Assembly: GCA_028824125.1 (NCBI GenBank)
Contig: JAPPES010000159.1
Coordinates: forward strand, 1-64,000
Origin: Candidatus Poribacteria bacterium
Lineage (GTDB): Bacteria > Poribacteria > WGA-4E > WGA-3G
DNA: 64,000 bases
Reading direction: 5' to 3'
The notes beneath the pieces were generated by a model. It did not search any database, was not told the origin of the DNA, and saw only the letters and a program-made list of their open reading frames with translations. Shown here piece by piece: positions 9,155 to 57,906 of the stretch. Position 1 is the stretch's first letter. Each line of letters opens with the position of its first letter. Both the position numbers and the translations under genes were made by a program.

Positions 9155-9178
9155 AATTTGTCTATTTTAACCTCTGTT

Positions 9179-40656: not shown

Positions 40657-40664
40657 GATGTGTG

Positions 40665-41723
40665 ATGACTGCGAAAGCAATTGCAACACTCATTGAACAG
40701 AAAATCACCGAAAAGATATTTCCCGGCGCTGTTGTCGCTATCTTTGAAAAAGACAAGGTTATCTATCATGCAGCGTTCGGAGACCGTATCATAAAACCGA
40801 AGCATGCCCCGATGCTGCACGATACTTTATTTGACCTCGCCTCCTTGACAAAACCAATCGTCATTGGTACACTTACTTTGCAGTTAGTGGCATCTGGAAA
40901 GTTGTCGTTAGATGCACCAGCACAGACATATCTACCCGCGTTCAAACAACCGGGCATTACATGTCGCCACCTTCTCGCGCATACCTCTGGTTTACCTGCT
41001 TGGAAACCGCTCTATATTGAAACAGATTCACCTGAAGATGTGATAGAACATTTAAGTAGCATGCCACTTGAATCTCCACCCGGTCAGAAGGTCACCTATA
41101 GCTGTTTAGGATATATCTTGATGGGGGAACTTATCTCTACCATCACCGGAGAATCGTTAGATAGTTTGGCGCATAACACTATCTTCAAACCGCTCGGCAT
41201 GAACCGCACCTTATACAATCCACCACCGCAAATGCATGATAGCTGTGCAGCAACAGAAGATTCAAATAGTTTTGAACGCAGGATGGTGAGCTCAGGGCAG
41301 CACGGTAGCTATTATCGTGGTCATAACTGGCGCGAAGGCGTAATTGTTGGGGAAGTCCACGATGAAAATGCGAATTTTCTGGGTGGTGTTTCTGGCAATG
41401 CGGGGCTCTTTTCTAATGCAAGGGATCTCATCACCTTTTGCCAGATGCTACTGCAAGATGGCGGCACGTTTCTATCTCCTGACAGCGTCCAAGCGTTAGC
41501 CACACGCCAGACACCTCCTAATGCTTCCGAACAACGGAGTATCGGTTGGCATATCCTTGCTGACGGGTCAATGTATCACACAGGTTTCACAGGCACTTCA
41601 ATACGTATTGATCTTGAAAAGGGACTGGCTGCGATCCTACTGACAAATCGGGTACATCCGGACGCCCAACGCACAGGCATCATTGAATGTCGAAACGAAT
41701 TCCACAGGATAGTTTTTGGATGA
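40665..41723 (+). CDS. serine hydrolase, beta-lactamase/CubicO family
   Basis: 352 residues. Class C beta-lactamase-like fold: catalytic S60-L-T-K63 in LFDLASLTKP, second motif YSCLGYILMGEL where Y-x-N is usual (Tyr kept, Asn replaced by Cys), and a HTGFTGTS motif near the C-terminus replacing K-T-G. No signal peptide. Members include esterases, D-aminopeptidases and muropeptide-modifying enzymes. Overlap with a NamZ-like gene and proximity to anmK suggest an activity on cell-wall fragments. It is the first gene of the cluster and has its own promoter. Confidence 0.88.
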   Translation: MTAKAIATLIEQKITEKIFPGAVVAIFEKDKVIYHAAFGDRIIKPKHAPMLHDTLFDLASLTKPIVIGTLTLQLVASGKLSLDAPAQTYLPAFKQPGITCRHLLAHTSGLPAWKPLYIETDSPEDVIEHLSSMPLESPPGQKVTYSCLGYILMGELISTITGESLDSLAHNTIFKPLGMNRTLYNPPPQMHDSCAATEDSNSFERRMVSSGQHGSYYRGHNWREGVIVGEVHDENANFLGGVSGNAGLFSNARDLITFCQMLLQDGGTFLSPDSVQALATRQTPPNASEQRSIGWHILADGSMYHTGFTGTSIRIDLEKGLAAILLTNRVHPDAQRTGIIECRNEFHRIVFG

Positions 41724-42886
41724 TCAAACTCGGTATCACCCACCTACTCACAGAAAAACAGGAATGGCTTGATGGCAAATCCATCGGTTTGATAACAAAT
41801 CATACCGGCGTTGATGAAAACTTGACACATACTATTGAATTGCTAACGGAATTCAATTTGGTCGCGCTTTTTTCACCAGAGCATGGATTGTGGGGTGCAG
41901 CGCAGGATGGCGTGAAAATAGCAGATTCAACGTATCGTCCAAATGAAAAAGAAACTGACACAGGAAAACAAACGCTGCAAGTCTATAGCCTATATGGAAA
42001 AACACCACTTGTATGGACGGAAGCACTTGAAACTTTAGATGTGCTCATCTACGATATACAGGATGTAGGAGCGCGGTATTATACCTATCTTGGTACGTTG
42101 CTGGAGACGATGAAAGCACTTGAAGGGTCATGTGTTGAATGCATTGTTGCGGATCGTCCGAATCCTATTGGTGGGATCAACGTAGAGGGTCCGATGTTAG
42201 AATCTGACTATACATCGTTAGTTGGGCCGTACCCTATCCCTGTGTGTTACGGCATGACTATTGGCGAAATTGCGCGGCTTTTTCATGCCGAACAGGGATT
42301 TAACTTTCCACTTAAGGTGGCTCGGCTGCAAGGGTGGCATCGTGAAATGTGGCATAGTAAAACGGGGCTACAGTGGGTACCACCTTCACCAAATATGCCC
42401 ACGCTTGAGACAGCTACACTCTATCCGGGGACATGTCTATTTGAAGGTACTAATGTGAGCGAAGGGCGCGGCACGACAAAACCTTTTGAATACATTGGCG
42501 CACCATGGATAGATAGTCAGTTATGGGCAACTCAATTGAACGAGCGCGAGTTCCCGGGCGTTCAATTCCGTCCAATTGTGTTTACACCGCAGTTTTCCAA
42601 ATATGAAGGTGAAGTGTGCCACGGCGTTGCTTTACATATTACCGATTCAAAGCAGGTGGCACCCATTGAAGTAGCGGTATGGATGTTAAGCATATTAATT
42701 ACTGAACATCCCAGCGAATTTGAATTTAGAGAGACACATTTTGATAGATTAGCGGGCAGTTCAACGCTCCGAGAAGCACTGTTAGCTGGAACACCCTGCA
42801 GTGAAATTATTGAGTCATGGTCAATTGATATAGAACAATTTCGAGTCAGGCGAGAACCTTATCTGTTGTATTATAGTGAACTTTAG
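41720..42886 (+). CDS. DUF1343 / NamZ-like exo-beta-N-acetylmuramidase
   Basis: 388 residues from the ATG overlapping the hydrolase TGA (ATGA). DUF1343 hallmarks: GKSIGLITNHTGVD, LVALFSPEHGLWG, VYSLYGKTPLVWTEALETLDVLIYDIQDVGARYYTYLGTL, VADRPNPIGGINVEGPML, and WVPPSPNMPTLETATLYPGTCLFEGTNVSEGRGTTKPFEYIGAPW. The characterised relative NamZ releases terminal MurNAc from peptidoglycan fragments. No export signal, unlike the secreted relative, so it would act on internalised muropeptides. The last codons and stop lie inside a MITE end. Confidence 0.9.
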   Translation: MIKLGITHLLTEKQEWLDGKSIGLITNHTGVDENLTHTIELLTEFNLVALFSPEHGLWGAAQDGVKIADSTYRPNEKETDTGKQTLQVYSLYGKTPLVWTEALETLDVLIYDIQDVGARYYTYLGTLLETMKALEGSCVECIVADRPNPIGGINVEGPMLESDYTSLVGPYPIPVCYGMTIGEIARLFHAEQGFNFPLKVARLQGWHREMWHSKTGLQWVPPSPNMPTLETATLYPGTCLFEGTNVSEGRGTTKPFEYIGAPWIDSQLWATQLNEREFPGVQFRPIVFTPQFSKYEGEVCHGVALHITDSKQVAPIEVAVWMLSILITEHPSEFEFRETHFDRLAGSSTLREALLAGTPCSEIIESWSIDIEQFRVRREPYLLYYSEL

Positions 42887-43002
42887 AATTAACAGGACAT
42901 TTTAGTTGTAGGAGGGAACTCCGATTCCCGACTACAAACGGGTCGCGATTCGGAGATCGCTCCTACAGAAAATGTGTCCCAATAATTTCAAAGTTCACCA
43001 TA
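42872..43002. mobile_element. TA-flanked MITE, copy 7, overlapping the NamZ stop codon
   Basis: Left end tatagtgaactttagaatta; the right end (aataatttcaaagttcaccata) is slightly degenerate. The interior has a long imperfect palindrome (gtaggagggaactccgatt with aatcgcgac...tcctac-like inverse). Codons Tyr-Ser-Glu-Leu-stop of the NamZ gene are read from its left end. Confidence 0.75.
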
Positions 43003-43102
43003 GTTGATTATTGCATAGTAGTAGGCACGCCGCCGTGCCGTTCACCAATTCGGTTAAAGGGCTTTTGAAAGACGATGCCTGTCTTAACCGACACCCAAAA
43101 CC

Positions 43103-44278
43103 ATGAAACCATTTTATGATCTGCTACAGAAAGAGAAAAAGACTGTCATTGGATTAATGAGTGGGACATCTGCAGATGGTATAGATGTTGCCCTTGTTGA
43201 AATAGCAGGATCAGGACTAACTACGGAAATTGAATTAATGGCGTTCGAGACAATTCCGTATACGCCTGAGATACGTGCAAGAATTTTTGGACTTTTTAGC
43301 ATAGAAACGGCACGGGTTGATGAAATCTGCACGATGAATTTTGTGTTGGGCAAGCTATTTGCTGAAAGTGTTCTGACTGTGTTAAAAAAAGTTGACATAG
43401 CACCGACACGAGTTGACCTCATCGGCTCACACGGACAAACGATTCACCACATGCCTTCAGCACAGATTCCCGGAACGCTACAGATTGGTGAACCTGCCGT
43501 GATAGCACATGAAACAGGTATCCCAACAATCGCTGATTTCCGCGTAGCAGATGTTGCTGCAGGCGGGGAAGGTGCCCCGTTAATCGCATATCCTGATTTT
43601 CTGCTATTTCACCATTCTACACAGACAATTGGACTATTGAACATAGGCGGTATTGCAAACCTGACCGTGCTACCAGCAGGCAAAGGGATTGAAGCAGTTC
43701 ACGCCTCAGATACAGGGCCTGGCAACATGGTTCTGGATGCATGCGTTGCAAAAATAACAGGTGATGCAAAGCAGTTTGATGAAAATGGGGAATTGGCACG
43801 TCAAGGTACGGTGTGTCCAGACCTTTTAGAAACGTGGCTTGCACATCCGTTTTTTGAATTGTCTCCGCCAAAAACGACAGGACGTGAAATGTTTGGCACA
43901 ACGTTTGCGAATGCCTGCCTGCAACAGATCAGCGTCCAAAAAATTTCAGAGTTCGATGGACTTGCAACACTTACAGCATTGACAGTTGAGAGTATTTTCC
44001 GGTATTATAAGCATTTTGTTGAAACAGAAACGCCGCTGGATATTTTATACGTTAGCGGTGGTGGCGCACAAAACCCTCTTATGATGCGCGGTCTCACCGA
44101 AACGTTTGACCCTATTCCAGTTGTGAATGTAACGGAAACAGGTATTTCGGGCGATGCCAAGGAGGCAATTGCTTTTGCTATTCTTGCCAACGAGGCGGTG
44201 CATGGAAATTTGGGTAATGTTCCGAATGCGACAGGGGCATCGCGCGGAAAGATTTTAGGGAAGTTTGTTTGTCCATAG
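43103..44278 (+). CDS. anmK: anhydro-N-acetylmuramic acid kinase
   Basis: 391 residues, family length. ATP and sugar motifs: VIGLMSGTSADGIDVALVEI, LIGSHGQTIHHMP, ADFRVADVAAGGEGAPL, LLNIGGIANLTVLP, DTGPGNMVLDA (catalytic Asp region), LYVSGGGAQNPLMM. It cleaves and phosphorylates 1,6-anhydro-MurNAc to MurNAc-6-phosphate in cell-wall recycling. It follows the NamZ-like gene by 216 bases, mostly MITE. A cytoplasmic MurNAc-6-P etherase (murQ) is not present in the window. Confidence 0.95.
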   Translation: MKPFYDLLQKEKKTVIGLMSGTSADGIDVALVEIAGSGLTTEIELMAFETIPYTPEIRARIFGLFSIETARVDEICTMNFVLGKLFAESVLTVLKKVDIAPTRVDLIGSHGQTIHHMPSAQIPGTLQIGEPAVIAHETGIPTIADFRVADVAAGGEGAPLIAYPDFLLFHHSTQTIGLLNIGGIANLTVLPAGKGIEAVHASDTGPGNMVLDACVAKITGDAKQFDENGELARQGTVCPDLLETWLAHPFFELSPPKTTGREMFGTTFANACLQQISVQKISEFDGLATLTALTVESIFRYYKHFVETETPLDILYVSGGGAQNPLMMRGLTETFDPIPVVNVTETGISGDAKEAIAFAILANEAVHGNLGNVPNATGASRGKILGKFVCP

Positions 44279-46243: not shown

Positions 46244-46667
46244 TTACGCTTTTAAGAAGTTACTGAAGTGTGTGTCTTAAAAGTGACTTTTAGAGAAGTA
46301 TATAACTTCTACAAAAAATAGGCAACTGTTTTTGCATCTAAATGAGGGTGTTTATAAATTATTTAGTTGTTGTACCACGATGTTTTCGGTACTTCACAGG
46401 TCTCTTTTTTCAGGCATGTGAGGTCAAGTGTTTTTTCGCGTCCACTACCTAAGAGTAGCAAATAGCGTCACATACCGCTCTGCTGGAGTCGGGGAGATTG
46501 AGCCAGCAAAAAGACGAACCATTTAACCTGTGGTGCCTTTTAATTTTATGAACCCTATCAAAATCAGGTGACATTCGGTCTTCTGTGAATTCATATTTTC
46601 TTTAATACCAACAACCTAATCGGACAAATTCTTCAACCCCATCAGCGATCCACGCAAGGTGAAATTT
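46244..46667 (+). other. long structured 5' leader of rpoBC
   Basis: About 424 untranslated bases. Hairpins visible: cttttaaga (about 46249) with tcttaaaag (about 46274), agaagt/acttct (about 46294-46310), and a tgctgg...ccagca stem near 46482-46508. No ribosomal protein gene or leader ORF of note was found. It could be an autoregulatory or attenuation region, but I recognise no known RNA family. Confidence 0.5.
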
Positions 46668-49600
46668 ATGCCCAATACAAAAACTAATGGAAGTTCAGCA
46701 GCGTTACGAGAACGTGGTTCCTTTGCCAAAACCCCTTCAGTTCTTAAACTGCCCGACTTAATTGAGACCCAAAAACGATCCTACGCCGCATTTTTACAAC
46801 GTTTTGTCCCGGAAGATGAACGTGAGTCAAAAGGGTTACAGGCGTTGTTCAAGGAAGTGTTTCCGATTTATGATTTTAAAGAGACGACCAGTCTTGAATT
46901 TGTGAGTTATACGCTTAGCCCACCGACACACGATCTTTCAGATTGTCAAGCGCGCGGACTAAACTATCAGGTAAGGGTACAAGTTCGTTTAATGTGTGTT
47001 GAACGCGAAAAGGATCAGGATACCGGACAGACGCGTGTTTTAGATATCACCGAATCGGATGTATACCTCGGCGATATCCCTTTGATGACTGAGAATGGAA
47101 CTTTCATCATTAACGGGTCCGAACGGGTAATTGTCAATCAATTACATCGGTCTCCTGGCGTAATTTTTCTTGATAAATCAACTTCAACAAGCACACAAAA
47201 ACTGCCAACCGGCCAGATAATTCCCTATCGAGGAGCATGGATAGAGTTTGAATTCGATTCAAAGGATTGCATCCACGTCCGATTAGACCGAAAGAAAAAA
47301 CTATTAGCTACCGTGTTATTACGTGCACTCGGCTGGGAAACAGATGCGGAAATCCTAAAACTTTTCAGCAGCACAGAGGTTGTTCCGATGACGCAAGATG
47401 TCATTGGACGTGTCATCGCTGAACCCGTCGTCGATGCCGATTCAGGCGAAGTGCTGCTTGAAGCAAACACAAAGTTGTCTGAGATAGAATTTGATCGACT
47501 CACCGAGAATAAGGTGGCAGAGGTGGAAGTGTTGGTGAAATCAGATGAACAGGAACTTCGATATTTGCGGAATACGCTTTCACGTGACACGGTCAAGGCG
47601 TATGCAGGAGGAACATTGCAAGAGGGTGCCCTGCTTGAGATATTCCGCACCTTACGACCTGGTGATGCGCCAACACGCGATGCAGCGGCAGCTTGTTTGG
47701 AACGTCTCTTTTTTGATGGTGCACGCTACGATTTAGGCACCGTTGGCAGATACAAACTCAACTCACAACTTAGTGATTTGCCTGTTTATATTGATGAATC
47801 CGGTGAAACACCATCGGAAGAGATGCGGGTGCTGCGCAAGGAAGATATTGCAGCTACCTTACAAAACTTGATGAACATCCGAAATGGGCATAGAGATGTA
47901 GACGATTTGGACCATCTCGGTAATCGTCGAGTACGCGTTATCGGGGAACTCCTTGAGAATCAATTCCGTATCGCACTACTGCAAATACGTCGTGCAGCCC
48001 GCGAAAAACTAAGCACTGTCTCTGACGCACAGCAGAAGAACCCTAAGAATTTGGTTAATCCGAAGCCACTCATGATGTCACTCCGAGAGTTTTTCGGATC
48101 TAACCAACTTTCCCAATTCATGCAACAGATAAATCCGTTGGATGAACTCACCCATAAACGGCGTATTTCGGCGATTGGTCCCGGAGGTTTGCATCGTGAT
48201 CGTGCCACCGCAGCGGTTCGAGATGTCCACCGTACGCATTATGGACGTGTTTGTCCTTTAGAAACACCTGAGGGCCCCTCTATCGGTCTCATTGTGTCTT
48301 TGGCAACTTTTGCGCGTGTTAATCCGTACGGATTTTTAGAAACACCTTACCGTGCGGTCCGCAAAGGAAAAATCACTGAGGATGTTGAATATTTAACAGC
48401 AGATGCAGAGGACAAGTACAACATTGCCCCCGCAGATGCTATATCTTCTCGTCATAAATCAAAAATACTTCGTAGCCGAAAAGGTGAGGAAGTGCTTGAG
48501 CGTAATCTCACAGAGATAGACTACATCGGTATTGCCCCACAACAAATTGTGGGTGTTTCCGCTGCGCTCGTGCCTTTTTTAGAGCATGAAGACGCGAACC
48601 GTGCTCTGATGGGTGCTAACCACCAACGACAAGCAGTACCACTCATCCGCCCAGAGGCCCCGTGGGTCGGCACCGGTATGGAACATCGCGCTGCGCGTGA
48701 TGCTAATGCCATGATTATCGCACAACGTGGCGGTGTCATTTCCAGTGTTGATGCTGAAGAAATATTAATTCACACTGGGCAAGCACTTCATGTTGAAGAA
48801 GGTGAGCATGCTTTCAGTGAAATGGGGTACGATGTCTATAAACTGAAAAACTTCAAGCGGAGTAACAGCGGCACCTGTATCCATCAACGTCCACGCGTGA
48901 ATATAGGGGATGTTGTTGAAGCCGGTGATGTTATCGCCGATGGCACAGCCACCGAAGGCGGTGAACTCGCACTCGGAAGAAATATATTGTGTGCCTATAT
49001 GCCGTGGGGTGGACACAACTTTGAAGACTCAATCCTCATCAGCGAGTCGCTCATAAAAGACGACACGTTTACCTCTATCCATATTGAAGAATTCGAAGTC
49101 GCCGCGAGGCAAACCAAAATGGGGGACGAGGAGATTACACGTGATATTCCAAACATGTCTGCCCGCAGCCTTGCACAACTTGATGACGAAGGTATCATTC
49201 GGATAGGTAGTGTCGTGGGAACTGGTAGTATTCTCGTTGGCAAGATCTCACCGAAAGGTGAAAGTGAATATGGCCCTGAAGAAAAACTCCTACGCGCGAT
49301 TTTCGGTGAAAAAGTCAAAGAAGTTAAAGATGCCTCTGCCTATACCCGCCCCGGCGTAGAAGGGGTAGTCATTGATGTAAAGGTATTCTCCCGTCACGCA
49401 ACCCCTAACAGCGAGCAAACCGCCTGGCGCCAAGAAGCACTCCGTAAACAGATTGAGCAAACGTGGCAGGAACAGTGTGGACAGGTCGCTGAACGTTTGA
49501 CAGAAGAACTACGGGAGACTTTGGTCAACAAAGAACTCGCTTTTCCAACAACTTTCAGTGATGATAATAAGACTGCGGATGGTGAAGATATTGAATCACC

Positions 49601-50687
49601 ACAGCAGTTGGAAGTAGGAGACGTGTTAACACGCGAATATCTGGAGGCGCTCTCACAAAGTGAACTTGAAGCGCTTCAGATTACAGATACAGACGTAACG
49701 GCATACATCAAAAATCTCCAAGAACTTGCTGCTGGCCGCATCAATGCCTATACGCAGGAAAAAGAGGTAGCACTGGAGAAACTTGATGCGGGCGAAGAGT
49801 TGAAACCGGGTATTTTGAAACTTGTCAAAGTCTATGTTGCAAGTCGTCGACCCATCTCTATCGGCGATAAAATGGCAGGACGCTATGGAAATAAAGGCGT
49901 TGTGGCGAAGATTCTACCTGAAGAAGATATGCCATATCTACCGGATGGCAGCCCTGTTGATATAGTTTTGAATCCTCTCGGTGTGCCTTCTCGGATGAAT
50001 GTTGGGCAAATTCTTGAGATACACTTGGGGTTAGCATGCAAAGAACTTGGTCGGTATGTTGCTTCACCTGTATTTGACGGGGCTACAGAGGAAGAGGTAT
50101 TTGAGGAATTAGCGAAAACGGATTTACCCGAAAATGTCAAACAGACAGGTAAAAGCGTCCTCTACGATGGACGAACTGGTGAACCGTTCGGACAGGAAGT
50201 TACAGTTGGTTATGTCTATTTTCTCAAGCTGAATCACCTCGTCGCGGATAAAATGCACGCCCGTTCAACAGGCCCTTACTCCTTGGTAACGCAGCAGCCT
50301 TTAGGCGGTAAAGCACAACACGGTGGTCAACGCCTCGGTGAGATGGAAGTATGGGCATTAGAGGCTTATGGCGCAGCACACACGTTACAAGAGATGTTGA
50401 CTATCAAGTCGGACGACGTAAAAGGTAGAACCAAAATCTATGAATCTATCGTGAAGGGACAAAGTCCCTTAAAACCTGGCACCCCTGAATCTTTCAACGT
50501 GTTGGTAAGAGAACTGCAGAGTCTCGGTTTAAATGTTGAGTTAGCTGAAGGTGATCCTGTAGAAGTTGACTCCGAAGAAGTCGGACTCCATGAAGCAGAA
50601 TTCCCGATCCTGCATACGTTGGATACAATGGAACCCATAGATGAGGAACCAACTCTGAAACTCACATGGGACACCGATGATGAATAG
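46668..50687 (+). CDS. rpoB: RNA polymerase beta subunit
   Basis: 1339 residues from the ATG with AAGGTG 6 bases upstream; a GTG at 46659 is the alternative. Conserved regions: GTFIINGSERVIVNQLHRSPGV, the Rif region FFGSNQLSQFMQQINPLDELTHKRRISAIGPGGL, RVCPLETPEGPSIGLI, the active-site-proximal MPWGGHNFEDSILISESL, GDKMAGRYGNKGVV, and QPLGGKAQHGGQRLGEMEVWALEAYGAA at the C-terminal side. The Rif region departs from E. coli at D516 (Gln) and N518 (Ile). It is the first gene of its transcript; rplJ/rplL are not upstream, the neighbour there being a divergent DUF4416 gene. Confidence 0.98.
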   Translation: MPNTKTNGSSAALRERGSFAKTPSVLKLPDLIETQKRSYAAFLQRFVPEDERESKGLQALFKEVFPIYDFKETTSLEFVSYTLSPPTHDLSDCQARGLNYQVRVQVRLMCVEREKDQDTGQTRVLDITESDVYLGDIPLMTENGTFIINGSERVIVNQLHRSPGVIFLDKSTSTSTQKLPTGQIIPYRGAWIEFEFDSKDCIHVRLDRKKKLLATVLLRALGWETDAEILKLFSSTEVVPMTQDVIGRVIAEPVVDADSGEVLLEANTKLSEIEFDRLTENKVAEVEVLVKSDEQELRYLRNTLSRDTVKAYAGGTLQEGALLEIFRTLRPGDAPTRDAAAACLERLFFDGARYDLGTVGRYKLNSQLSDLPVYIDESGETPSEEMRVLRKEDIAATLQNLMNIRNGHRDVDDLDHLGNRRVRVIGELLENQFRIALLQIRRAAREKLSTVSDAQQKNPKNLVNPKPLMMSLREFFGSNQLSQFMQQINPLDELTHKRRISAIGPGGLHRDRATAAVRDVHRTHYGRVCPLETPEGPSIGLIVSLATFARVNPYGFLETPYRAVRKGKITEDVEYLTADAEDKYNIAPADAISSRHKSKILRSRKGEEVLERNLTEIDYIGIAPQQIVGVSAALVPFLEHEDANRALMGANHQRQAVPLIRPEAPWVGTGMEHRAARDANAMIIAQRGGVISSVDAEEILIHTGQALHVEEGEHAFSEMGYDVYKLKNFKRSNSGTCIHQRPRVNIGDVVEAGDVIADGTATEGGELALGRNILCAYMPWGGHNFEDSILISESLIKDDTFTSIHIEEFEVAARQTKMGDEEITRDIPNMSARSLAQLDDEGIIRIGSVVGTGSILVGKISPKGESEYGPEEKLLRAIFGEKVKEVKDASAYTRPGVEGVVIDVKVFSRHATPNSEQTAWRQEALRKQIEQTWQEQCGQVAERLTEELRETLVNKELAFPTTFSDDNKTADGEDIESPQQLEVGDVLTREYLEALSQSELEALQITDTDVTAYIKNLQELAAGRINAYTQEKEVALEKLDAGEELKPGILKLVKVYVASRRPISIGDKMAGRYGNKGVVAKILPEEDMPYLPDGSPVDIVLNPLGVPSRMNVGQILEIHLGLACKELGRYVASPVFDGATEEEVFEELAKTDLPENVKQTGKSVLYDGRTGEPFGQEVTVGYVYFLKLNHLVADKMHARSTGPYSLVTQQPLGGKAQHGGQRLGEMEVWALEAYGAAHTLQEMLTIKSDDVKGRTKIYESIVKGQSPLKPGTPESFNVLVRELQSLGLNVELAEGDPVEVDSEEVGLHEAEFPILHTLDTMEPIDEEPTLKLTWDTDDE

Positions 50688-50813
50688 TTATCAGGTATTA
50701 GTTATTGGTCATCGGTTAAGGACAAGGTTTCTATAGTCAAAACCTCTTAACTGAAAACCGAATGCTGATAACTGATAACCTTTCTTCCGATAACCATATA
50801 AAGGAGCAAAAGA
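50688..50813. repeat. REP-like imperfect palindrome between rpoB and rpoC
   Basis: gttatcaggtattagttatt on the left is partly inverse to aactgaaaaccgaatgctga-taactgataacc on the right. No promoter was recognised. AAGGAG near 50801 is the rpoC SD. It may modulate mRNA stability between the cistrons. Confidence 0.5.
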
Positions 50814-53800
50814 ATGGCAGACAAAGAAAATCGATTTAATCGTATCTCTATCAGTATCGCCTCGCCCGAACAGATAAAAGATTGGGCAAAACGGACAGCC
50901 TGTAAGCGGCGGAATCCGGCAAGCGAAAAAAAATGGAAGTGTCCCGAGAAAGACACCTGTGATTGCGGCGAAATCAAAAAGGCAGAAACGATTAACTACC
51001 GTAGTTTTCGCCCTGAACAGCAAGGTCTATTTTGTGAAGCAACGTTTGGACCACAGAAGGATTTTGAGTGCAGTTGTGGTAAGTACAAACGTATTAAACA
51101 CAAAGGACTTATTTGTGACCAATGTGGCGTTGAGGTGACAAAATCACAAGTCCGAAGAGAACGACTCGGTTACATCAAACTTGCCACCCCAGTTTCTCAT
51201 ATATGGTTTTTTAAAGGAATTCCTTCGCGGCTCGGCACATTTCTGGAACTTGCCTCACGGCAGGTTGAGCGGGTTCTTTACTTTGAAGCATTTATTGTCA
51301 CAGAAGTTATGGATGACAGTTGCGGTTTAGTCGAAAAAGACATCCTCACGGAATCAGAGATGAATGCTAAGCTGCGTGAACATCCAGATTCATTTCAAGC
51401 AGGAACAGGGGCTGAAGCAATTCAGGAACTGCTGCGCAAAATTGATCTTCCCGAAGATGTGAAGAAATTCACAGAGGAACTTGAGGCAACCTCCAGCCAC
51501 CAGAAAAAAGTTAAACTCTCCAAGCAACTCAAGATGGTGGCAGGTTTTGATAAAGCAGAAATGCATCCTGATTGGATGATTCTTGATGTGCTTCCTGTCA
51601 TTAGTCCTGACCTCCGTCCTTTAGTTTCTTTGGAAGGTGGTAGATTTGCTACAAGTGATCTCAATGATCTATATCGCCGTGTAATTAACCGAAACAACCG
51701 TCTACAAAAACTTATCGATCTCCGTTCTCCCGAAGTCATCCTCCGAAATGAAAAACGGATGCTTCAAGAATCCGTTGACGCGTTTTTGGATAACGGCAGA
51801 CACGGGCGACGCGTAACTGGGCCAGGTAAACGCGCGCTCAAATCTTTGTCGGATATCCTCAAAGGTAAAGTCGGGCGTTTCCGACAGAACCTCCTCGGCA
51901 AGCGAGTCGACTATTCTGGCAGAAGTGTCATTGTTGTTGGCCCCGAACTGGAACTGCATCAGTGCGGAGTGCCAAAATTAATGGCTGTCGAACTTTTCAA
52001 GCCGTTCATTATTGAGAAACTTTTGGCATCTGGAGAGGTCCAGACTATCAAACGTGGAAAATATATGACCGAGCACGTTACACCGGACTCACCTGTTTGG
52101 GAAGCATTAGAAGAGGTTATCGCTGACCATCCAGTGTTGTTAAATCGTCCCCCTACGCTCCACAGACTCGGAATTCAGGCGTTCATGCCGGTACTTGTTG
52201 AAGGTAAGTCAATTCGGATTCCGCCTCTCGTTTGTAAGGCGTTCAATGCTGATTTTGATGGCGATCAGATGGCAGTCCATGTGCCGCTGTCTATTGAGGC
52301 ACGAGCAGAAGCGAAATTGTTACTACTAAGTAGCGGTAATATCCTCAAACCTTCCCATGGTGAACCGATTACGGTGCCAGAACTTGATATGATTTTGGGT
52401 GCAAGTTTTCTTACAAAAGCATTACCAGAACACCATAAGCGGGCAGAACAGCTCCACGCTGCATATACAGCAAAATCGGAAGATGCCGAATCAGATGCTG
52501 TTTTCTCATCATTGGACAGTGAAAACTGGGCGAAGCGCCGCTTTACGTCCGTAGATGAGGTAACACATGCACACGGTTGTGGAACGCTCAAACTACATGA
52601 TTCCGTTTCGTTGTTTTTCAAAGGACATCGTGAACCGATCCTTACAACCGTCGGGCGCGTAATCTTCAATGAAGTTCTTCCACATACAAACGGGACTGCT
52701 TCACTCACTTGGAAAGACGAAACGACAGGGATTGAATTGCCATTTTTCAACGAAGAAGCACGCAGCCAACGTTTGTCACAACTTATCAAACGTTGTTTCA
52801 ACGAACTTGGCACTGCTGAAACTGTATCCTTGTTAGATCGGTTGCAGAAACTTAGCTTTGAGTACGCAACCCGCAGTGGAATTTCTCCTGGTATAAAAGA
52901 TTACTTGATACCGCTTGACAAAACAGAAATTCTCGCTGAGGCAAGTAAACAAATTGAACGTTTAAGCGAGGAAAAAAACCTTGAGGCAGAGGAATTAGAG
53001 AACCAGAAGATTCGGATATGGTATGATGCTTCCGAAAAAATTGAAGAGGCGATGTTCACCGCGCTGCCAGCAACAGAAACGTATCTGGTCGAACAAGGTA
53101 AAGAAGTAGAGGGGTTTAGTCCGGTACATCTGATGGCAGATAGTGGTGCCCGCGCGCGTAAAAATCCATTTATCCAAATTAGTGCTATCGTTGGATTGAA
53201 ATCCAAGCAAAGCGGTGAGATTCTCTCTACACCGATTCAATCTTCTTATCGGGAAGGTTTGGATGTGCTTGACTACTTTACTTCAACCTATGGGTCACGT
53301 AAGGGTTTGGTGGATACCGCTATGAAAACCGCCGCCTCTGGATACCTCACGCGGAAACTTGTTGATGTGGCGCAGGATGTGATGATTACCGAAGAGGATT
53401 GCGGAACAACGCACGGTATCCTCAAATTCACTACAGACGCAGGCGCAATTGGGTTCAAGATTAGTGGACGTATCACCGTAGATCCCGTTATACATCCCGC
53501 AACAGAGGAGATACTCATTGAGAGTGATACGTTGATTACACCGCAGATGGCACAAGTTATTGAGGAAGCGGAAGTTCCAAGTGTCCGTGTTCGATCTATA
53601 CTTACTTGTGAGACGGAAAAAGGTGTCTGTGCAGCCTGCTACGGTGCTGATTTGACATCAGGACAACGTGCCAATGTTGGAGAGGCTATCGGCATTATCG
53701 CAGCGCAATCTATCGGTGAACCCGGAACACAGTTGACAATGCGTACGTTCCATACAGGCGGTGTGGTTGAAGATATGAGTGAACGCCTTGCACGGAAGAT

Positions 53801-56435
53801 TCTGGCGAAGGCTACGGGGAAAGTGCGGTTTCGTGATTTCATTCCCGGACGCACCGTGCGTGAAGAAAACGGACTCTGGATAGTGCAACAGGTTGCTGAA
53901 CACCTCGACCAACCGAAGTATAAGGTTAAAACTGTCCAACACCCTGAATGCAAGCTGCAGCCAGACGAACTTCTCACCGAGAAACAGTATCAAGAAAACC
54001 GTGAACGTTTTCCTGGGTTTGAGGTAGAACCTATTGCCTATGAGGTTACCAAAGTGACCCGACCCGATGTCATTGAGGCAAACGCCGGAACAGATGCGCC
54101 GTTACAAGAAGGACAGTATCTCACAGAACACGAATACAGCATCTATTTTCACAAGTTTTCCCCGTTCCGATGCTCTGAAGCACACTATCGTGTAAAAAGT
54201 GTAAAACATCCAGATACTTCGCTGAAGACAGGCACACTATTGACAGAAAGCGAGGCGGAAACATGGCGTGCCGAGATTCGCCCGTTTGAGGGTGAATGGG
54301 TGTATCAAACGAAAAAAGGCGCAATTCTTACCGAAAGTGAATATTTACAGAAGCAGAACAGTGGTAAAGCGGAAATGATGTATCAAATTCAGAAGGTAAC
54401 ACATGCCAGCTGTCCGTTTAAGGAAGGGAAACTACTCTCTCCAGAGGAAGAAAGTCAGTACCATTTAGAACTTGACGACCCTGTCTATACTGTAACTGAA
54501 GTCAGCGATGAAATTGACTTGACTGTAGGGGAAGAACTAAATGCTGCAGAATTCCGTCGCGCACAGGAGACATTCAGAACATTTGATGTGCAACGTCCGT
54601 CAACGCAGTTTTATCGTGTGACACAAGTCATGCACCCGGAATGCCCGCTAAAACCTGATGAACTCATTGAAGTCGGAAAATTAGAGGCACTTCAGGATAA
54701 ATTCAGCGGGTTTACCGAAGAACGACTCAAGTATCGGATTACCGCTGTGCATCATCCCAAATGTAAAATGGAACTTGAGACACTGCTTACTGAAAATGAG
54801 AAAAAAGCAGTATTGAAGGAATTCCCTGGTTTCGAGGTTGATGTTACCAAGAATGAAGATGGTCTTGAGGTTGAACGGCTTTACCGGGTTATCGCCTCAC
54901 ATCACGCTGACTTTCCCGTTGCCGTTGATGAACTCATCACGCCGTCCGAGTCTAATCGATACCGACGAACCTATAAAGGATTTGATTTTGAGAAACTTTA
55001 CCTATACGTGCCTGAGGGAACTGAAGATGAAGAAACTTTGACAGAAGCCGACTACAAGGCACTTGTTAAACAGCATCGAGACACAGATACACCACTACCT
55101 GATGTAAAACTGGTTTATCACGTCCTCGCTGTTCATCATGCCGATTGTCCCTTCACTGCTGAACAGCAGATTGACGAGGATGAATATAAATTCGCACAAC
55201 GGCTTTACAAAGGTTTTGATACCGAACGCGTCTACAAGGTAACGGGTTTAGCCGAAACGGATACAGAAGTCGCTATGGGTGATATTCTTAGTGATGCTGA
55301 CTATAAAAAAGAAGCGGCTTCCACTTCAAAGAATACTTATCAAGTGACAAAAGTGATACACCCAAACTGCACACTTACTGTTGGTGAAGAATTGAAAGAT
55401 TGGGAATATGCCACAGCACTTGAACAGTATGCAGGTGTTGAGGTAGATGGCTTAATTGAAACCTTCCGAATCGATATTGACATCACAGGTGGTGGAAGTG
55501 TCTCACACCTTATTCCCGCTGGTTATTTAGTTTCTGTTAAGGATGGAGAACGTGTGAAAACACAACATTCGTTGGCAGAATTGCAGGAAAAAACGACAAA
55601 CCTTGACATTGTTGCTGGTATCCCGCGTGTGACGGAGCTGTTTGAAGCACGGCGCCCGAAACGCGAAGATGCTGCTGAAATTGCTGAGATTGATGGGCAT
55701 GTACAACTCACCGGACAGAAAGCTGGCGTGCCTCAATACCGAATCGTAGATGGGGCAACCAAAAGCCGCTTATATTCTATTCCAGACGAGAAACGCCGTG
55801 TTGACGATGGCGACTGGGTCAAAGCGGGAGAACCTCTAACGGATGGATATCTCAACCCACACGATATTCTCGCCATTGGTAGAACCATCCTTAACGGACA
55901 CTCTCTTGAGGGTGAAGAAGCACTTTGGGCATATCTCGTGGATGAGGTGCAAACAGTTTATCCGACCAACAATATCAATGATAAACACGTGGAAGTGATT
56001 GTGCGGCAGATGCTTCAAAAGATACGTATTCTAACTATTGGGGATACAAAGTTCTACGCGAACGATGAAGTCAGTCGACATAAGTTCCATGCTGAGAATA
56101 GGCGCGTTGAACAAGATGGCGGTACGCCCGCAACAGGTGAACCTGTCTTGCAAAGTATCAGCAAAGCATCGCTTAGTACGGATAGTTTTATCTCTGCAGC
56201 AAGTTTCCAACAGACACCTAAAGTTCTCACCGATGCCGCTGTTGAAGGGCAAACGGATCTGCTTACGGGGTTGAAAGAAAACGTCATCCTTGGACGTCTC
56301 ATTCCAGCAGGGACAGGTTTCTCTGAGTGGCAAGAACTTGAAGTATCAGGTGACGCAATTGCTGATCCAGAACCAGAAGAACTGCCTGAACCAGTTTCTG
56401 AGCCTGAAGCCATTATCGAGACGGTTGAAGAATAA
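50814..56435 (+). CDS. rpoC: RNA polymerase beta' subunit with a giant repeat-filled trigger-loop insertion
   Basis: 1873 residues against about 1200-1400 usually. N-terminal zinc site (CDCGEIKK...FECSCGKYK...ICDQCG), clamp, catalytic NADFDGDQMAVH (about 480-491), bridge helix and trigger loop start GEPGTQLTMRTFHTGGV (to V984). The insertion (SI3 position) runs about 985-1597, after which DIVAGIPRVTELFEARRPK resumes the conserved core. E. coli SI3 is about 188 residues. Residues about 1036-1545 consist of about 13 degenerate units with the pattern Y-x-V-x-x-V-x-H-P-x-C-x-L-x-x-x-E-L-L-T-E-x-E plus a helical tail ending in F-x-G-F. Flanking segments look like normal SI3. C-terminus acidic (EPEELPEPVSEPEAIIETVEE). 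Frame is continuous and the core motifs are intact, so the gene is functional. Confidence 0.97.
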   Translation: MADKENRFNRISISIASPEQIKDWAKRTACKRRNPASEKKWKCPEKDTCDCGEIKKAETINYRSFRPEQQGLFCEATFGPQKDFECSCGKYKRIKHKGLICDQCGVEVTKSQVRRERLGYIKLATPVSHIWFFKGIPSRLGTFLELASRQVERVLYFEAFIVTEVMDDSCGLVEKDILTESEMNAKLREHPDSFQAGTGAEAIQELLRKIDLPEDVKKFTEELEATSSHQKKVKLSKQLKMVAGFDKAEMHPDWMILDVLPVISPDLRPLVSLEGGRFATSDLNDLYRRVINRNNRLQKLIDLRSPEVILRNEKRMLQESVDAFLDNGRHGRRVTGPGKRALKSLSDILKGKVGRFRQNLLGKRVDYSGRSVIVVGPELELHQCGVPKLMAVELFKPFIIEKLLASGEVQTIKRGKYMTEHVTPDSPVWEALEEVIADHPVLLNRPPTLHRLGIQAFMPVLVEGKSIRIPPLVCKAFNADFDGDQMAVHVPLSIEARAEAKLLLLSSGNILKPSHGEPITVPELDMILGASFLTKALPEHHKRAEQLHAAYTAKSEDAESDAVFSSLDSENWAKRRFTSVDEVTHAHGCGTLKLHDSVSLFFKGHREPILTTVGRVIFNEVLPHTNGTASLTWKDETTGIELPFFNEEARSQRLSQLIKRCFNELGTAETVSLLDRLQKLSFEYATRSGISPGIKDYLIPLDKTEILAEASKQIERLSEEKNLEAEELENQKIRIWYDASEKIEEAMFTALPATETYLVEQGKEVEGFSPVHLMADSGARARKNPFIQISAIVGLKSKQSGEILSTPIQSSYREGLDVLDYFTSTYGSRKGLVDTAMKTAASGYLTRKLVDVAQDVMITEEDCGTTHGILKFTTDAGAIGFKISGRITVDPVIHPATEEILIESDTLITPQMAQVIEEAEVPSVRVRSILTCETEKGVCAACYGADLTSGQRANVGEAIGIIAAQSIGEPGTQLTMRTFHTGGVVEDMSERLARKILAKATGKVRFRDFIPGRTVREENGLWIVQQVAEHLDQPKYKVKTVQHPECKLQPDELLTEKQYQENRERFPGFEVEPIAYEVTKVTRPDVIEANAGTDAPLQEGQYLTEHEYSIYFHKFSPFRCSEAHYRVKSVKHPDTSLKTGTLLTESEAETWRAEIRPFEGEWVYQTKKGAILTESEYLQKQNSGKAEMMYQIQKVTHASCPFKEGKLLSPEEESQYHLELDDPVYTVTEVSDEIDLTVGEELNAAEFRRAQETFRTFDVQRPSTQFYRVTQVMHPECPLKPDELIEVGKLEALQDKFSGFTEERLKYRITAVHHPKCKMELETLLTENEKKAVLKEFPGFEVDVTKNEDGLEVERLYRVIASHHADFPVAVDELITPSESNRYRRTYKGFDFEKLYLYVPEGTEDEETLTEADYKALVKQHRDTDTPLPDVKLVYHVLAVHHADCPFTAEQQIDEDEYKFAQRLYKGFDTERVYKVTGLAETDTEVAMGDILSDADYKKEAASTSKNTYQVTKVIHPNCTLTVGEELKDWEYATALEQYAGVEVDGLIETFRIDIDITGGGSVSHLIPAGYLVSVKDGERVKTQHSLAELQEKTTNLDIVAGIPRVTELFEARRPKREDAAEIAEIDGHVQLTGQKAGVPQYRIVDGATKSRLYSIPDEKRRVDDGDWVKAGEPLTDGYLNPHDILAIGRTILNGHSLEGEEALWAYLVDEVQTVYPTNNINDKHVEVIVRQMLQKIRILTIGDTKFYANDEVSRHKFHAENRRVEQDGGTPATGEPVLQSISKASLSTDSFISAASFQQTPKVLTDAAVEGQTDLLTGLKENVILGRLIPAGTGFSEWQELEVSGDAIADPEPEELPEPVSEPEAIIETVEE

Positions 56436-56458
56436 TCTCCGATTGCCAAATTACTTAT

Positions 56459-56484
56459 AGGGCGGGGCCTCTGTGCCTCGCCCT
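56459..56484. terminator. bidirectional terminator between rpoC and fumC
   Basis: 10-bp stem agggcggggc/gcctcgccct (one G-U) with a 6-nt loop, followed by atttcgtt. It lies between convergent genes and can serve both. Confidence 0.75.
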
Positions 56485-56514
56485 ATTTCGTTAAGTGCTA
56501 ATTACTTGGAAATA

Positions 56515-57906
56515 TTATAGATTCGGCGCAACCATTTCCCTCGGGACAACAAGCGCATCAAATTCTTCCGCTGTTAACACACCCTCTTCAACGGCTACGT
56601 CGCGGAGTGTAGTCCCTTCCCGATGCGCCTTTTGTGCAAGTTTTGCCGCCGCATCGTACCCTATCTGTGGTGTCAACGCTGTCACCAACATCAAAGACGC
56701 TTCCAGATAACCAGCAATAGCAGATGTGTTCGCTTCAATCCCAACAACGCAATGCTGACGGAACGCATCACACGCATCCGATAACAACCGAATCGATTGT
56801 AGGCTATTGAAGGCTATCACAGGCATAAATACGTTCAATTCAAAGTTGCCTGCACTGCCAGCGAGTGAAATCGTTGTATCATTCCCAATCACTTGTGCGC
56901 AAACCATTGTCATCGCCTCACACTGTGTCGGATTAACTTTGCCGGGCATAATGGAACTTCCAGGTTCGTTTTCGGGCAGAATCAATTCGCCGATACCGCA
57001 TCGGGGACCGCTCCCTAACCACCGAATATCGTTTGCAATCTTATACAAGGCACAAGCGAAACGTTTCATAGCACCGCTTGCGGATACGAGTGCATCTCTA
57101 CTTCCTAATGCTTCGAACTTATTCGGTGCGCTCACATAAGGATGTCCTGTGCGTTTCGCGATACGAGATGCTACCGCGTCCGCATAATCTGGGTGCGTAT
57201 TCAACCCTGTTCCGACTGCCGTGCCACCGATCGGAAGTTCATAGAGATGTGACAACGTATTTCTAATCGCTTCCTGCGCATGTGCTACCTGTTGCACATA
57301 TCCGCTGAATACTTGTCCTAATGTCAAAGGCGTTGCATCCATCAGATGCGTCCTGCCTGTTTTTACAATATCTGAAAATTCCTGTGCTTTATCTTCCAAT
57401 GCGCCTTGTAATGCAGCAGCTGCGGGCAACAAACGTTCAACGCACTGCGTAACAACCGCTATATGAATTGCAGTCGGAAAAACATCGTTTGTTGACTGCG
57501 AACGGTTGACATGATCATTCGGATGTACAGGGGATTTCATACCACGACTACCACCTGCAAGTTCATTTGCACGGTTTGCGATAACTTCGTTGATATTCAT
57601 GTGTGTCTGTGTGCCACTACCTGTTTGCCAAATCCGAAGCGGAAACTGGTCTGCAAGGTTGCCATTAGCCACTTCGTCTGCAGCACGGCAGATGAGTTCC
57701 GCTATTTCTGGGGTAATACCACCGAGTTCGGCATTGACGGTAGCGGCTGCGTGCTTAATAATGGCAAGTGCTCGGATGAATGTAGGTGGGAAATGCTCAT
57801 CTCCGATGTCAAAATTGATATATGCCCGCTGTGTCTGTGCACCCCAATATGCATCCGCTGGCACTTCTACATCGCCTAAACTATCTTTTTCTGTTCGTGT
57901 TTTCAT
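56515..57906 (-). CDS. fumC: fumarate hydratase class II
   Basis: 463 residues from the ATG with GAGGA 5 bases upstream. Interconverts fumarate and malate in the TCA cycle. Family motifs: [54 protein letters not shown], the mobile-loop signature [20 protein letters not shown] with the catalytic Ser, and the class II C-terminus [21 protein letters not shown]. Aspartase is the only close alternative; the N-x-x-Q-C-E-A and TLRDVA details fit fumarase. Convergent with rpoC. Confidence 0.95.

What the first reader, a model, noticed from the sequence alone, without database searches (positions are those of the whole stretch)
53757..55604. RpoC trigger-loop insertion expanded by about 13 tandem degenerate repeats
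Seen: beta' is 1873 aa and the stretch between the trigger-loop motif TMRTFHTGGV and DIVAGIPRVTELFEARRPK is about 610 aa, with about 13 units of about 39 aa over residues 1036-1545. Known: E. coli SI3 (about 188 aa) occupies this site and affects pausing and the trigger loop. Inference: a lineage-specific mechanical or docking module on RNA polymerase. I know of no description of a repeat array like this.
Basis: partly seen in the sequence, partly recalled or inferred. Interest (0 to 1): 0.85.

Follow-up and report, generated by a model that had tools for sequence, protein, structure and literature searches.

The report
RNA polymerase arm of clamp copies
In a family of Poribacteria the moving trigger loop of RNA polymerase carries a long arm built of about 13 copies of a small piece of the enzyme's own clamp, and in a few relatives similar copies elsewhere in the enzyme come with nuclease domains of the anti-phage type, which gives a handle on how such insertions arise.

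Summary
Confirmed. RpoC (window 50814-56435) has a 613-aa trigger-loop insertion, ~509 aa of it an array of ~13 degenerate ~39-aa units (11 clear, 2 partial). An artefact is unlikely: the insert has 614 or 616 aa (counted from one residue earlier) in 15 of 15 genomes measured in the genus, occurs in seven named records titled 'chromosome', and is under purifying selection (dN/dS 0.04-0.28, 15 pairs).

The units are copies of a module of the beta' clamp (E. coli beta' ~142-181). A clamp profile built without this family hits 32 of 32 arrays; profiles of SBHM-a, SBHM-b, core BEAN and bD7 hit 0 of 32. Sister families f2 and f4 have exactly one matching site per genome (11 of 11). The array is nested in one SBHM of SI3, at the loop that in E. 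coli lies nearest downstream DNA (1062-1079).

In sister genera the same units occur in beta SI1 (17 of 17), in one of them also in SI2 (15 of 15). A few relatives carry in-frame inserts of such units plus a nuclease-type domain, mostly of anti-phage type (Hhe/ProA-, ZorE-like), one inside the trigger-loop array itself.

Best reading: a constrained acidic arm grown by duplicating the enzyme's own module. 'Docking' is untested; giant SI3 repeats are known in cyanobacteria, of another unit.

The parts
50814..56435 (+). rpoC, RNA polymerase beta', 1873 aa
   Evidence: TIGR02386 above its cut-off; PF04997/00623/04983/05000/04998
46659..50687 (+). rpoB, RNA polymerase beta, 1342 aa; no unit match in this genome
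   Evidence: Pfam Rpb2 domains; no unit match at E < 0.05
51297..51386 (+). native clamp copy of the module (aa 162-191), diverged in this genus
   Evidence: unit profile hit E 6.1e-4, 0.035, 9.5 bits; the ORF used there starts 4 codons upstream, coordinates shifted accordingly
53736..53765 (+). trigger-loop N-terminal motif TMRTFHTGGV
53763..53918 (+). first half of the host SBHM of SI3
   Evidence: SBHM-b profile from other families hits 29 of 32 whole inserts but 0 of 32 arrays trimmed of flanks; alignment
53919..54020 (+). clamp-like unit 1
54039..54161 (+). clamp-like unit 2 (longer than the others)
54186..54272 (+). clamp-like unit 3
54312..54353 (+). clamp-like unit 4, partial (weak, E 0.88 here; E 0.016 in G009)
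54381..54464 (+). clamp-like unit 5
54486..54584 (+). clamp-like unit 6
54612..54713 (+). clamp-like unit 7
54732..54833 (+). clamp-like unit 8
54882..54983 (+). clamp-like unit 9
55032..55076 (+). clamp-like unit 10, partial (weak, E 0.11)
55116..55217 (+). clamp-like unit 11
55233..55310 (+). clamp-like unit 12 (E 0.074, 0.0069; 3.5e-7 in G009)
55338..55436 (+). clamp-like unit 13
55440..55604 (+). second half of the host SBHM of SI3
55605..55661 (+). conserved segment after the insertion, DIVAGIPRVTELFEARRPK

Best explanation
The insertion is a lineage-specific SI3 of a Candidatus Poribacteria family: one SBHM (the one that in E. coli faces downstream DNA; its partner is missing) in whose DNA-facing loop sits an array of ~13 modules that arose by duplication of the ~35-aa beta' clamp module (bD2, by position the 'small left claw') of the enzyme itself. 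Shown: site, nesting, homology to the clamp module, family-wide presence, steady length in the genus, purifying selection, the same units in beta SI1 and SI2 of sister genera. Inferred: it grew by unit-wise tandem duplication, which is seen at DNA level only in recent inserts elsewhere in rpo genes; and it works as a long, acidic, jointed arm along the downstream channel that ties trigger-loop movement to surface contacts (with the lobe/SI1, sigma or other factors), much as the cyanobacterial SI3 arm does, rather than as an enzyme of its own.
For: Clamp profile built without family f1: 32 of 32 arrays at E < 1e-3 (window 2.3e-23), against 0 of 32 each for BEAN bD5, SBHM-a, SBHM-b and bD7; hhalign probability 98.3% for clamp, at most 2.6% for the others. 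Unit profile against all PDB sequences: the top 4 of 6 matches at E <= 10 are beta' chains at clamp residues 141-170 (E 0.016 to 0.51). Of 84 phylum genomes, 55 of 58 of f1 have 8-18 unit matches, 11 of 11 of families f2 and f4 have exactly one, 15 of 15 others none; RpoC of those 11 has its only match in the clamp. Clamp copies of f2/f4 score 19-36 bits, of g2 24-31, of E. coli 3.2; best PDB sequence 18.2 bits, 16.6 for its best stretch. In the window's genome only RpoC matches (9 places, E <= 0.01). Array dN/dS 0.04-0.28 in 15 chosen pairs, core 0.04-0.14. Insert length 614 (12) or 616 (3) in 15 g1 genomes, the window's included. Units keep their order between the window and G009 (11 of 11). 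Array net charge -35 in 509 aa. It lies at the place of E. coli 1062-1079, the loop of T1068 and D1073 that comes closest to downstream DNA (PMC2939025, passages). Same units in RpoB at SI1 in 17 of 17 g2/g3 and at SI2 in 15 of 15 g2.
Against: The native clamp copies of the window's own genus (5.7-12.5 bits), of g3 (11-12) and of family f3 (6-14) are diverged, so origin 'from its own clamp' rests on g2 and on f2/f4. Unit order is only partly kept between genera (best match is the positional counterpart in 4 of 11 for G024, 5 of 11 for G023, 3 of 11 for G019). Structure support is weak: both models have pTM near 0.5 and Foldseek gave no match below E 0.001; 13 of the 22 small-model matches come from RNA polymerase entries, but the aligned parts were not shown, one is a beta chain, and E is 4 or more. 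No functional data: the arm's contacts and its effect on the trigger loop are inference. dN of the array is 1.5 to 4.4 times that of the core in 14 of 15 pairs; in G008/G014 it is lower than the core's.
Confidence: 0.72

Rival explanations
1. The array is a domesticated remnant of a nuclease-bearing in-frame insertion element that spreads clamp-like units through rpoB and rpoC without splicing; its present role, if any, is secondary.
For: G008 RpoC, G014 RpoB, G063 RpoC and G075 RpoB carry in-frame inserts with short repeats, then a nuclease-type domain, then 3 or 4 clamp-like units, at four different sites; G033 has a PF18741 domain inside the trigger-loop array itself (E 6e-24). The unit tails of G008 (beta') and G014 (beta) are 45% identical over 178 aa (E 1e-49), closer than to any of the trigger-loop arrays compared (best E 2e-11 and 4e-19), and each species lacks the other's insert while the genes are 94-97% identical in DNA. 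Their short repeats also match each other (E 6e-5 and 3e-6). Unit-sized 105-bp tandem copies at 92% in L120. RpoB SI2 of 15 of 15 g2 carries a relative of the G075 domain.
Against: Pfam shows no nuclease in the window RpoC; no target duplication or mobility was shown; the nucleases are of defence type rather than the usual homing families; four of the five f1 inserts were seen in one species each with no second assembly, so an assembly fault cannot be excluded for each singly, although the frames are open. Tails of L106 and L120 are as near to g2 RpoB units as to the other inserts.
Confidence: 0.35
2. The units are a large version of the known SI3/SBHM (HABAS) repeats, as in cyanobacteria.
For: Same site; host SBHM present; Foldseek's top-ranked whole-model match is the cyanobacterial Si3 crystal structure, not significant (E 0.016).
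Against: SBHM-a and SBHM-b profiles hit 0 of 32 trimmed arrays; most units are predicted with a helix of about 10 residues.
Confidence: 0.04
3. The units are BEAN/BBM2 modules, as predicted for one to six tandem copies in beta SI1 of other bacteria.
For: Similar motif by eye; BEAN-like copies do occur in SI1 of family f4 (by eye); one to six BBM2 in SI1 is from PMC2939025 (passages).
Against: Core BEAN profile hits 0 of 32 arrays, hhalign 2.6%. Only the beta' bD5 BEAN was tested, not the beta SI1 ones.
Confidence: 0.05
4. A neutral, tolerated expansion without function.
For: E. coli enzymes without SI1 or SI2 showed only mild or no defects in vitro (PMC2939025, passages); units are degenerate.
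Against: dN/dS 0.04-0.28 and steady length within the genus.
Confidence: 0.08

Closest known systems
E. coli SI3 (beta'i6), two SBHMs
   Same: Same place in the trigger loop; one SBHM is recognisable and hosts the array; both are acidic
   Different: SBHM-a missing; ~13 clamp-like units at the loop of E. coli 1062-1079; 614 instead of 193 aa between the same anchors
Cyanobacterial Si3 (~645 aa, 8 or 9 SBHMs; SI3-sigma arch)
   Same: Similar size and site; a repeat-built arm in the trigger loop
   Different: Units are SBHMs there, clamp-like modules here; whether an arch with sigma forms is unknown
BEAN, HABAS and sLC insertions of bacterial RNA polymerase (PMC11515920)
   Same: The unit corresponds by position to bD2, one of the two domains that paper calls sLC; it mentions rare variants with HABAS, BEAN and sLC insertions in bD2, bD4, bD5 and bD7
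   Different: The sections read describe HABAS, not this module, at the trigger loop, and 'poribacter' does not occur in the main text; it holds that insertion tapered off early, against recent-looking inserts here; its supplementary tables were not read
Inteins in RNA polymerase genes
   Same: In-frame inserts with nuclease domains inside polymerase subunits
   Different: No intein or Hint model was listed at E <= 1 in Pfam or NCBIfam (E <= 0.1); inserts carry clamp-like units instead

Membership tests
SI3 / beta'i6 trigger-loop insertion | Lies between the trigger-loop halves | tested here: met
SI3 / beta'i6 trigger-loop insertion | Contains SBHM sequence | tested here: met
   SBHM-b profile hits 29 of 32 whole inserts, 0 of 32 trimmed arrays
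SI3 / beta'i6 trigger-loop insertion | Two SBHMs as in E. coli | tested here: not met
   SBHM-a has no counterpart in the alignment of the window and G024 flanks. The SBHM-a profile hits 10 of 32 whole inserts, which I put down to its likeness to SBHM-b
Cyanobacterial Si3 | Repeat units are SBHMs | tested here: not met
   0 of 32 arrays with SBHM-a or SBHM-b profiles of E. coli and other Poribacteria; a cyanobacterial SBHM profile was not made
Cyanobacterial Si3 | Arm contacts sigma (SI3-sigma arch) | not testable with these tools
   needs a structure of the holoenzyme
Clamp module bD2 (sLC) | Sequence profile of the beta' clamp segment | tested here: met
   32 of 32 arrays; hhalign 98.3%
Clamp module bD2 (sLC) | Same fold | tested here: inconclusive
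   strands and a ~10-residue helix per unit predicted; Foldseek matches not significant
Clamp module bD2 (sLC) | Similarity to bD7, which PMC11515920 calls homologous to bD2 | tested here: not met
   0 of 32, hhalign 2.0%
BEAN / BBM2 | Core BEAN profile (beta' bD5) | tested here: not met
   0 of 32, hhalign 2.6%
BEAN / BBM2 | Profile of the beta SI1 BEAN copies | not tested
   -
Intein (for the nuclease-bearing inserts of relatives) | Hint/splicing domain | tested here: not met
   no such model listed at E <= 1
Anti-phage nuclease domains (inserts of relatives) | Match to effector nuclease models | tested here: met
   ProA/Hhe (NCBIfam) and PDC-S37/Hhe (PADLOC) for G008, G063, G033; ZorE for G014 and G044 (both libraries) and G040 (NCBIfam). 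All NCBIfam scores are far below the whole-protein cut-offs, since only the nuclease part is present. Not met for G075 (Pfam HSDR_N_2 E 0.0027 below cut-off; no NCBIfam match; PADLOC best E 0.019)

The most novel reading that the evidence does not exclude
In this phylum the two large RNA polymerase subunits are a platform on which clamp-derived modules and anti-phage-type nucleases are combined and moved between sites in recent time. The trigger-loop array is the oldest and fixed product; in some species it or its sister inserts carry an apparently intact nuclease, in G033 on the arm that leaves the loop beside downstream DNA, so that the polymerase itself could be a sensor and tethered effector against phages that hijack it.
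Probability: 0.25. Interest if true: 0.95.

Novelty: new variant of a known kind. Interest (0 to 1): 0.8.

Why it matters
Lineage-specific insertions decorate many bacterial RNA polymerases, yet how they arise is called unclear in the survey I read (PMC11515920), which infers that insertion stopped early. Here the source module can be named (the enzyme's own clamp), the host loop is located, families without the array survive, and unit-sized tandem copies at 92% DNA identity are caught in a recent-looking insert. That makes the origin of such arms testable. Nuclease domains of anti-phage type inside polymerase subunits would, if expressed and active, be a new way of linking transcription and defence; the lists of my nine answered paper searches showed no such report, in an open-access library only.

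Tried and rejected
Fixed-offset autocorrelation for periodicity: no better than shuffles; replaced by profiles. TRF on 50000-57000: no row covers the array, so recent slippage is rejected there. SBHM, BEAN bD5 and bD7 as the unit: rejected. Unit elsewhere in the window's genome: not seen. Whole-model Foldseek and three-unit Foldseek: no significant match. Inteins for the nuclease-bearing inserts: no model listed. Host-flank duplication as the origin of the short repeats: looked plausible by eye, not tested, not claimed. Nucleases in five other long trigger-loop inserts and in L112 RpoC: none listed at E <= 0.1. Plasmid search with the G008 nuclease plus units: 262 records match, 0 over 80% of the query; seven of the ten rows shown have a named feature, all DUF4011, DUF3320 or AAA proteins. 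HNH domain of G014 against PDB: best E 0.13, not convincing. L134 looked like a broken rpoC (1409 aa); its frame ends in a run of X from masked bases, so it says nothing. The in-frame TAA that one search reports in a G075 RpoB match: the L106 frame is open to its usual C-terminus.

Full report
OBSERVATION. The window holds rpoB (46659-50687) and rpoC (50814-56435), both on the + strand. Between TMRTFHTGGV (aa 975-984) and DIVAGIPRVTELFEARRPK (aa 1598-1616) of RpoC lie 613 aa. Two simple tests of periodicity fail: autocorrelation is no better than shuffles and TRF sees no array in the DNA. The units are degenerate (24% mean identity, 55 pairs).

NOT LIKELY AN ARTEFACT. A search of GTDB genome contigs with an alignment of 13 inserts returned 47 loci, all with Poribacteria in the title, seven of them records titled 'chromosome: 1'; the nearest is 90% identical to the window in the insert. 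Among inserts measured from unnamed relatives, genus g1 has 614 aa in 12 and 616 in 3 of 15 (window included), genus g2 630-835 in 15, genus g3 842 and 845 (of 18 g1 genomes I left out G013, split by a contig end, and G004 and G007, where no RpoC match was found). Array dN/dS is 0.04-0.28 in 15 pairs that I chose (0.04-0.22 in 14 pairs within g1 or g2, 0.28 in g3), core RpoC 0.04-0.14. In one pair, G008/G014, the array is more alike than the core, which may point to recombination. So the array is a translated, constrained part of the enzyme.

WHAT THE UNIT IS. The unit profile also hits aa 166-195 (162-191 counted from the ATG) in the same protein's clamp and, in RpoC of f2 and f4, only that place. 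I therefore built profiles of five core segments from 20 RpoC of other families plus E. coli and ran them on 32 arrays trimmed of their flanks: clamp segment bD2 (E. coli 142-181), 32 of 32 at E < 1e-3 (window 2.3e-23); bD5 (BEAN), bD7, SBHM-a, SBHM-b, 0 of 32 each. Profile-profile probability is 98.3% for bD2 and at most 2.6% for the rest. A search of the unit profile in all PDB sequences put four beta' chains on top, each at clamp residues 141-170 (E 0.016 to 0.51; two unrelated proteins follow at 0.67 and 0.69). That bD2 is one of the two 'sLC' domains of PMC11515920 I take from the positions in its Table 2. Of that paper I read the first two of six parts (to the end of 2.3), sections 2.4 and 2.6 and the first part of the discussion.

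WHERE IT CAME FROM. Over 84 genomes of the phylum, family f1 has 8-18 unit matches (beta and beta' together) in 55 of 58 genomes (none in G004, G007, G068), families f2 and f4 exactly one in 11 of 11, and 15 others none, among them the three f3 genomes of the same order. Clamp copies of f2/f4 score 19-36 bits and those of g2 24-31, against 3.2 for E. coli and 18.2 for the best PDB sequence (the weakest f4 copy, 18.7, is no better than that). The clamp copies of g1, the window's genus, have drifted (5.7-12.5 bits), as have those of g3. The simplest reading is that the array arose in the stem of f1 from a clamp module of this order. f2/f4 have an SI3 of 193-212 aa, with two SBHMs in the four aligned; f1 kept SBHM-b, lost SBHM-a, and has the array in the SBHM-b loop that corresponds to E. 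coli 1062-1079. In E. coli this loop holds T1068, which the phage T7 kinase phosphorylates, and D1073, the closest point to downstream DNA (16 A) (PMC2939025, passages). Two f3 genomes (G036, G039) have an unrelated-looking insertion in the same loop (by eye).

SAME UNITS IN BETA. The window's RpoB has none. In g2 and g3 RpoB, units lie at SI1 (17 of 17) and in g2 also at SI2 (15 of 15) (positions mapped on E. coli by pairwise alignment and approximate). In g2 the SI2 insert also contains a stretch related to the domains of the G075 RpoB insert (15 of 15; E 7e-6 to 4e-11 for the second copy, 0.003 to 5e-9 for the first, small database; one control region of RpoB gave no match).

NUCLEASE-BEARING INSERTS. 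Following odd lengths I found in-frame inserts with nuclease-type domains: G008 (=L090) RpoC in the BEAN bD5, PF18741 E 8e-23; G063 (=L120) RpoC in bD7, PF18741 E 5e-20; G033 RpoC inside the trigger-loop array, from insert residue ~135, PF18741 E 6e-24; G014 (=L091) RpoB, HNH-like, ZorE E 1.5e-11 in NCBIfam and 6e-20 in PADLOC, no Pfam HNH match; G075 (=L106) RpoB, two copies of a domain with only a weak HSDR_N_2 match (E 0.0027); and, with no clamp-like unit found, G044 and G040 RpoB of family f4, ZorE-like. The PF18741 domains match the C-terminal nuclease part of anti-phage proteins ProA, Hhe and PDC-S37. By eye the D...E-x-D residues expected for this fold (recalled) are present in all three. 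After the nuclease motif the unit profile finds 4, 4, 3 and 3 units in L090, L091, L120 and L106. Searching 81 genomes with the G008 and G014 nuclease parts, matches inside rpoB or rpoC were those six genomes only: 4 of 56 of f1 and 2 of 9 of f4; the G075 domain was not searched that way. Most other matches are ORFs of another size, about 700-1860 aa for PF18741 and 66-352 aa for HNH. In the seven carriers and G002, rpoB and rpoC are each found at one place (pieces of a gene are listed apart); G040 and G044 have in addition a compact polymerase-like ORF. The G008 and G014 unit tails are 45% identical over 178 aa, though in different subunits, while the two species are ~94-97% identical in these genes and each lacks the other's insert. 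DNA-level tandem copies exist in three of the four unit-bearing inserts checked: 105 bp at 92% in L120 (one 35-aa unit), 48 bp at 89% and 84 bp at 80% in L090, 51 bp at 93% in L106; none in L091, and none in the other kind of insert of L093.

HOW IT MOST LIKELY WORKS. Shown: position, parentage, constraint. Inferred: an acidic arm (net -35) that leaves SI3 beside downstream DNA. E. coli SI3 likely has to move when the trigger loop folds (PMC2939025), and the cyanobacterial SI3 arm seals the cleft by touching sigma while the loop can still fold (PMC10120043, passages). An arm of clamp-like units could do either. In g2 and g3 SI1, which in E. coli also points toward downstream DNA, carries the same units, so contacts between like units across the channel are a specific prediction for those genera, not for the window's. 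Models are of middling confidence (pLDDT 79.8 and 84.7, pTM 0.50 and 0.53) and say little about the arm's path.

NOVELTY. A repeat-built giant SI3 is known (cyanobacteria). Arrays of clamp modules at this site, and their sharing with SI1 and SI2, I did not see in the lists of nine answered paper searches of an open-access library; Lane and Darst 2010 and Iyer 2004 were not opened and are known to me only as cited in PMC2939025, PMC1586193 (passages) and PMC11515920. I therefore rate the array a new variant of a known kind, and keep the polymerase-borne nuclease as the bold reading.

Noticed in passing
L090 (G008) RpoC ~8495-9755; L120 (G063) RpoC; G033 RpoC; L091 (G014) and L106 (G075) RpoB: In-frame inserts with nuclease-type domains (PF18741, ZorE-like HNH, or weak HSDR_N_2) together with clamp-like units inside essential polymerase genes.
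   Followed up: partly
L080 (G040) and L081 (G044), rpoB, SI1 region: ZorE-like HNH domain inside RpoB SI1 of family f4, next to BEAN-like copies; G043 has several BEAN-like copies there and no nuclease (by eye).
   Followed up: partly
L093 (G002) RpoC, after aa ~711: A ~430-450-aa helical insertion with DPKKL-like repeats, absent from the relatives compared; no Pfam match above its cut-off.
   Followed up: no
G040:C20, G044:C61 and similar ORFs of 1024-1104 aa in f2 and f4: A second, compact polymerase-like ORF; in G040 and G044 it matches RpoC ~363-534 and RpoB ~1066-1286 in one frame length.
   Followed up: no
L085 (G051:C244, 2224-aa ORF) and L086 (G048:C155, 1019-aa ORF): Additional divergent beta/beta'-like genes; the 2224-aa ORF matches both subunits. 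Contamination was not excluded.
   Followed up: no
L078 (G036) and L079 (G039) SI3: A different insertion in the same SBHM loop in family f3, so this loop may be a hot spot for insertion (by eye).
   Followed up: no
window 40662-44278: Peptidoglycan-recycling type neighbours upstream of rpoB: beta-lactamase-fold protein, NamZ, AnmK; no ribosomal protein gene among the ten ORFs tested.
   Followed up: no
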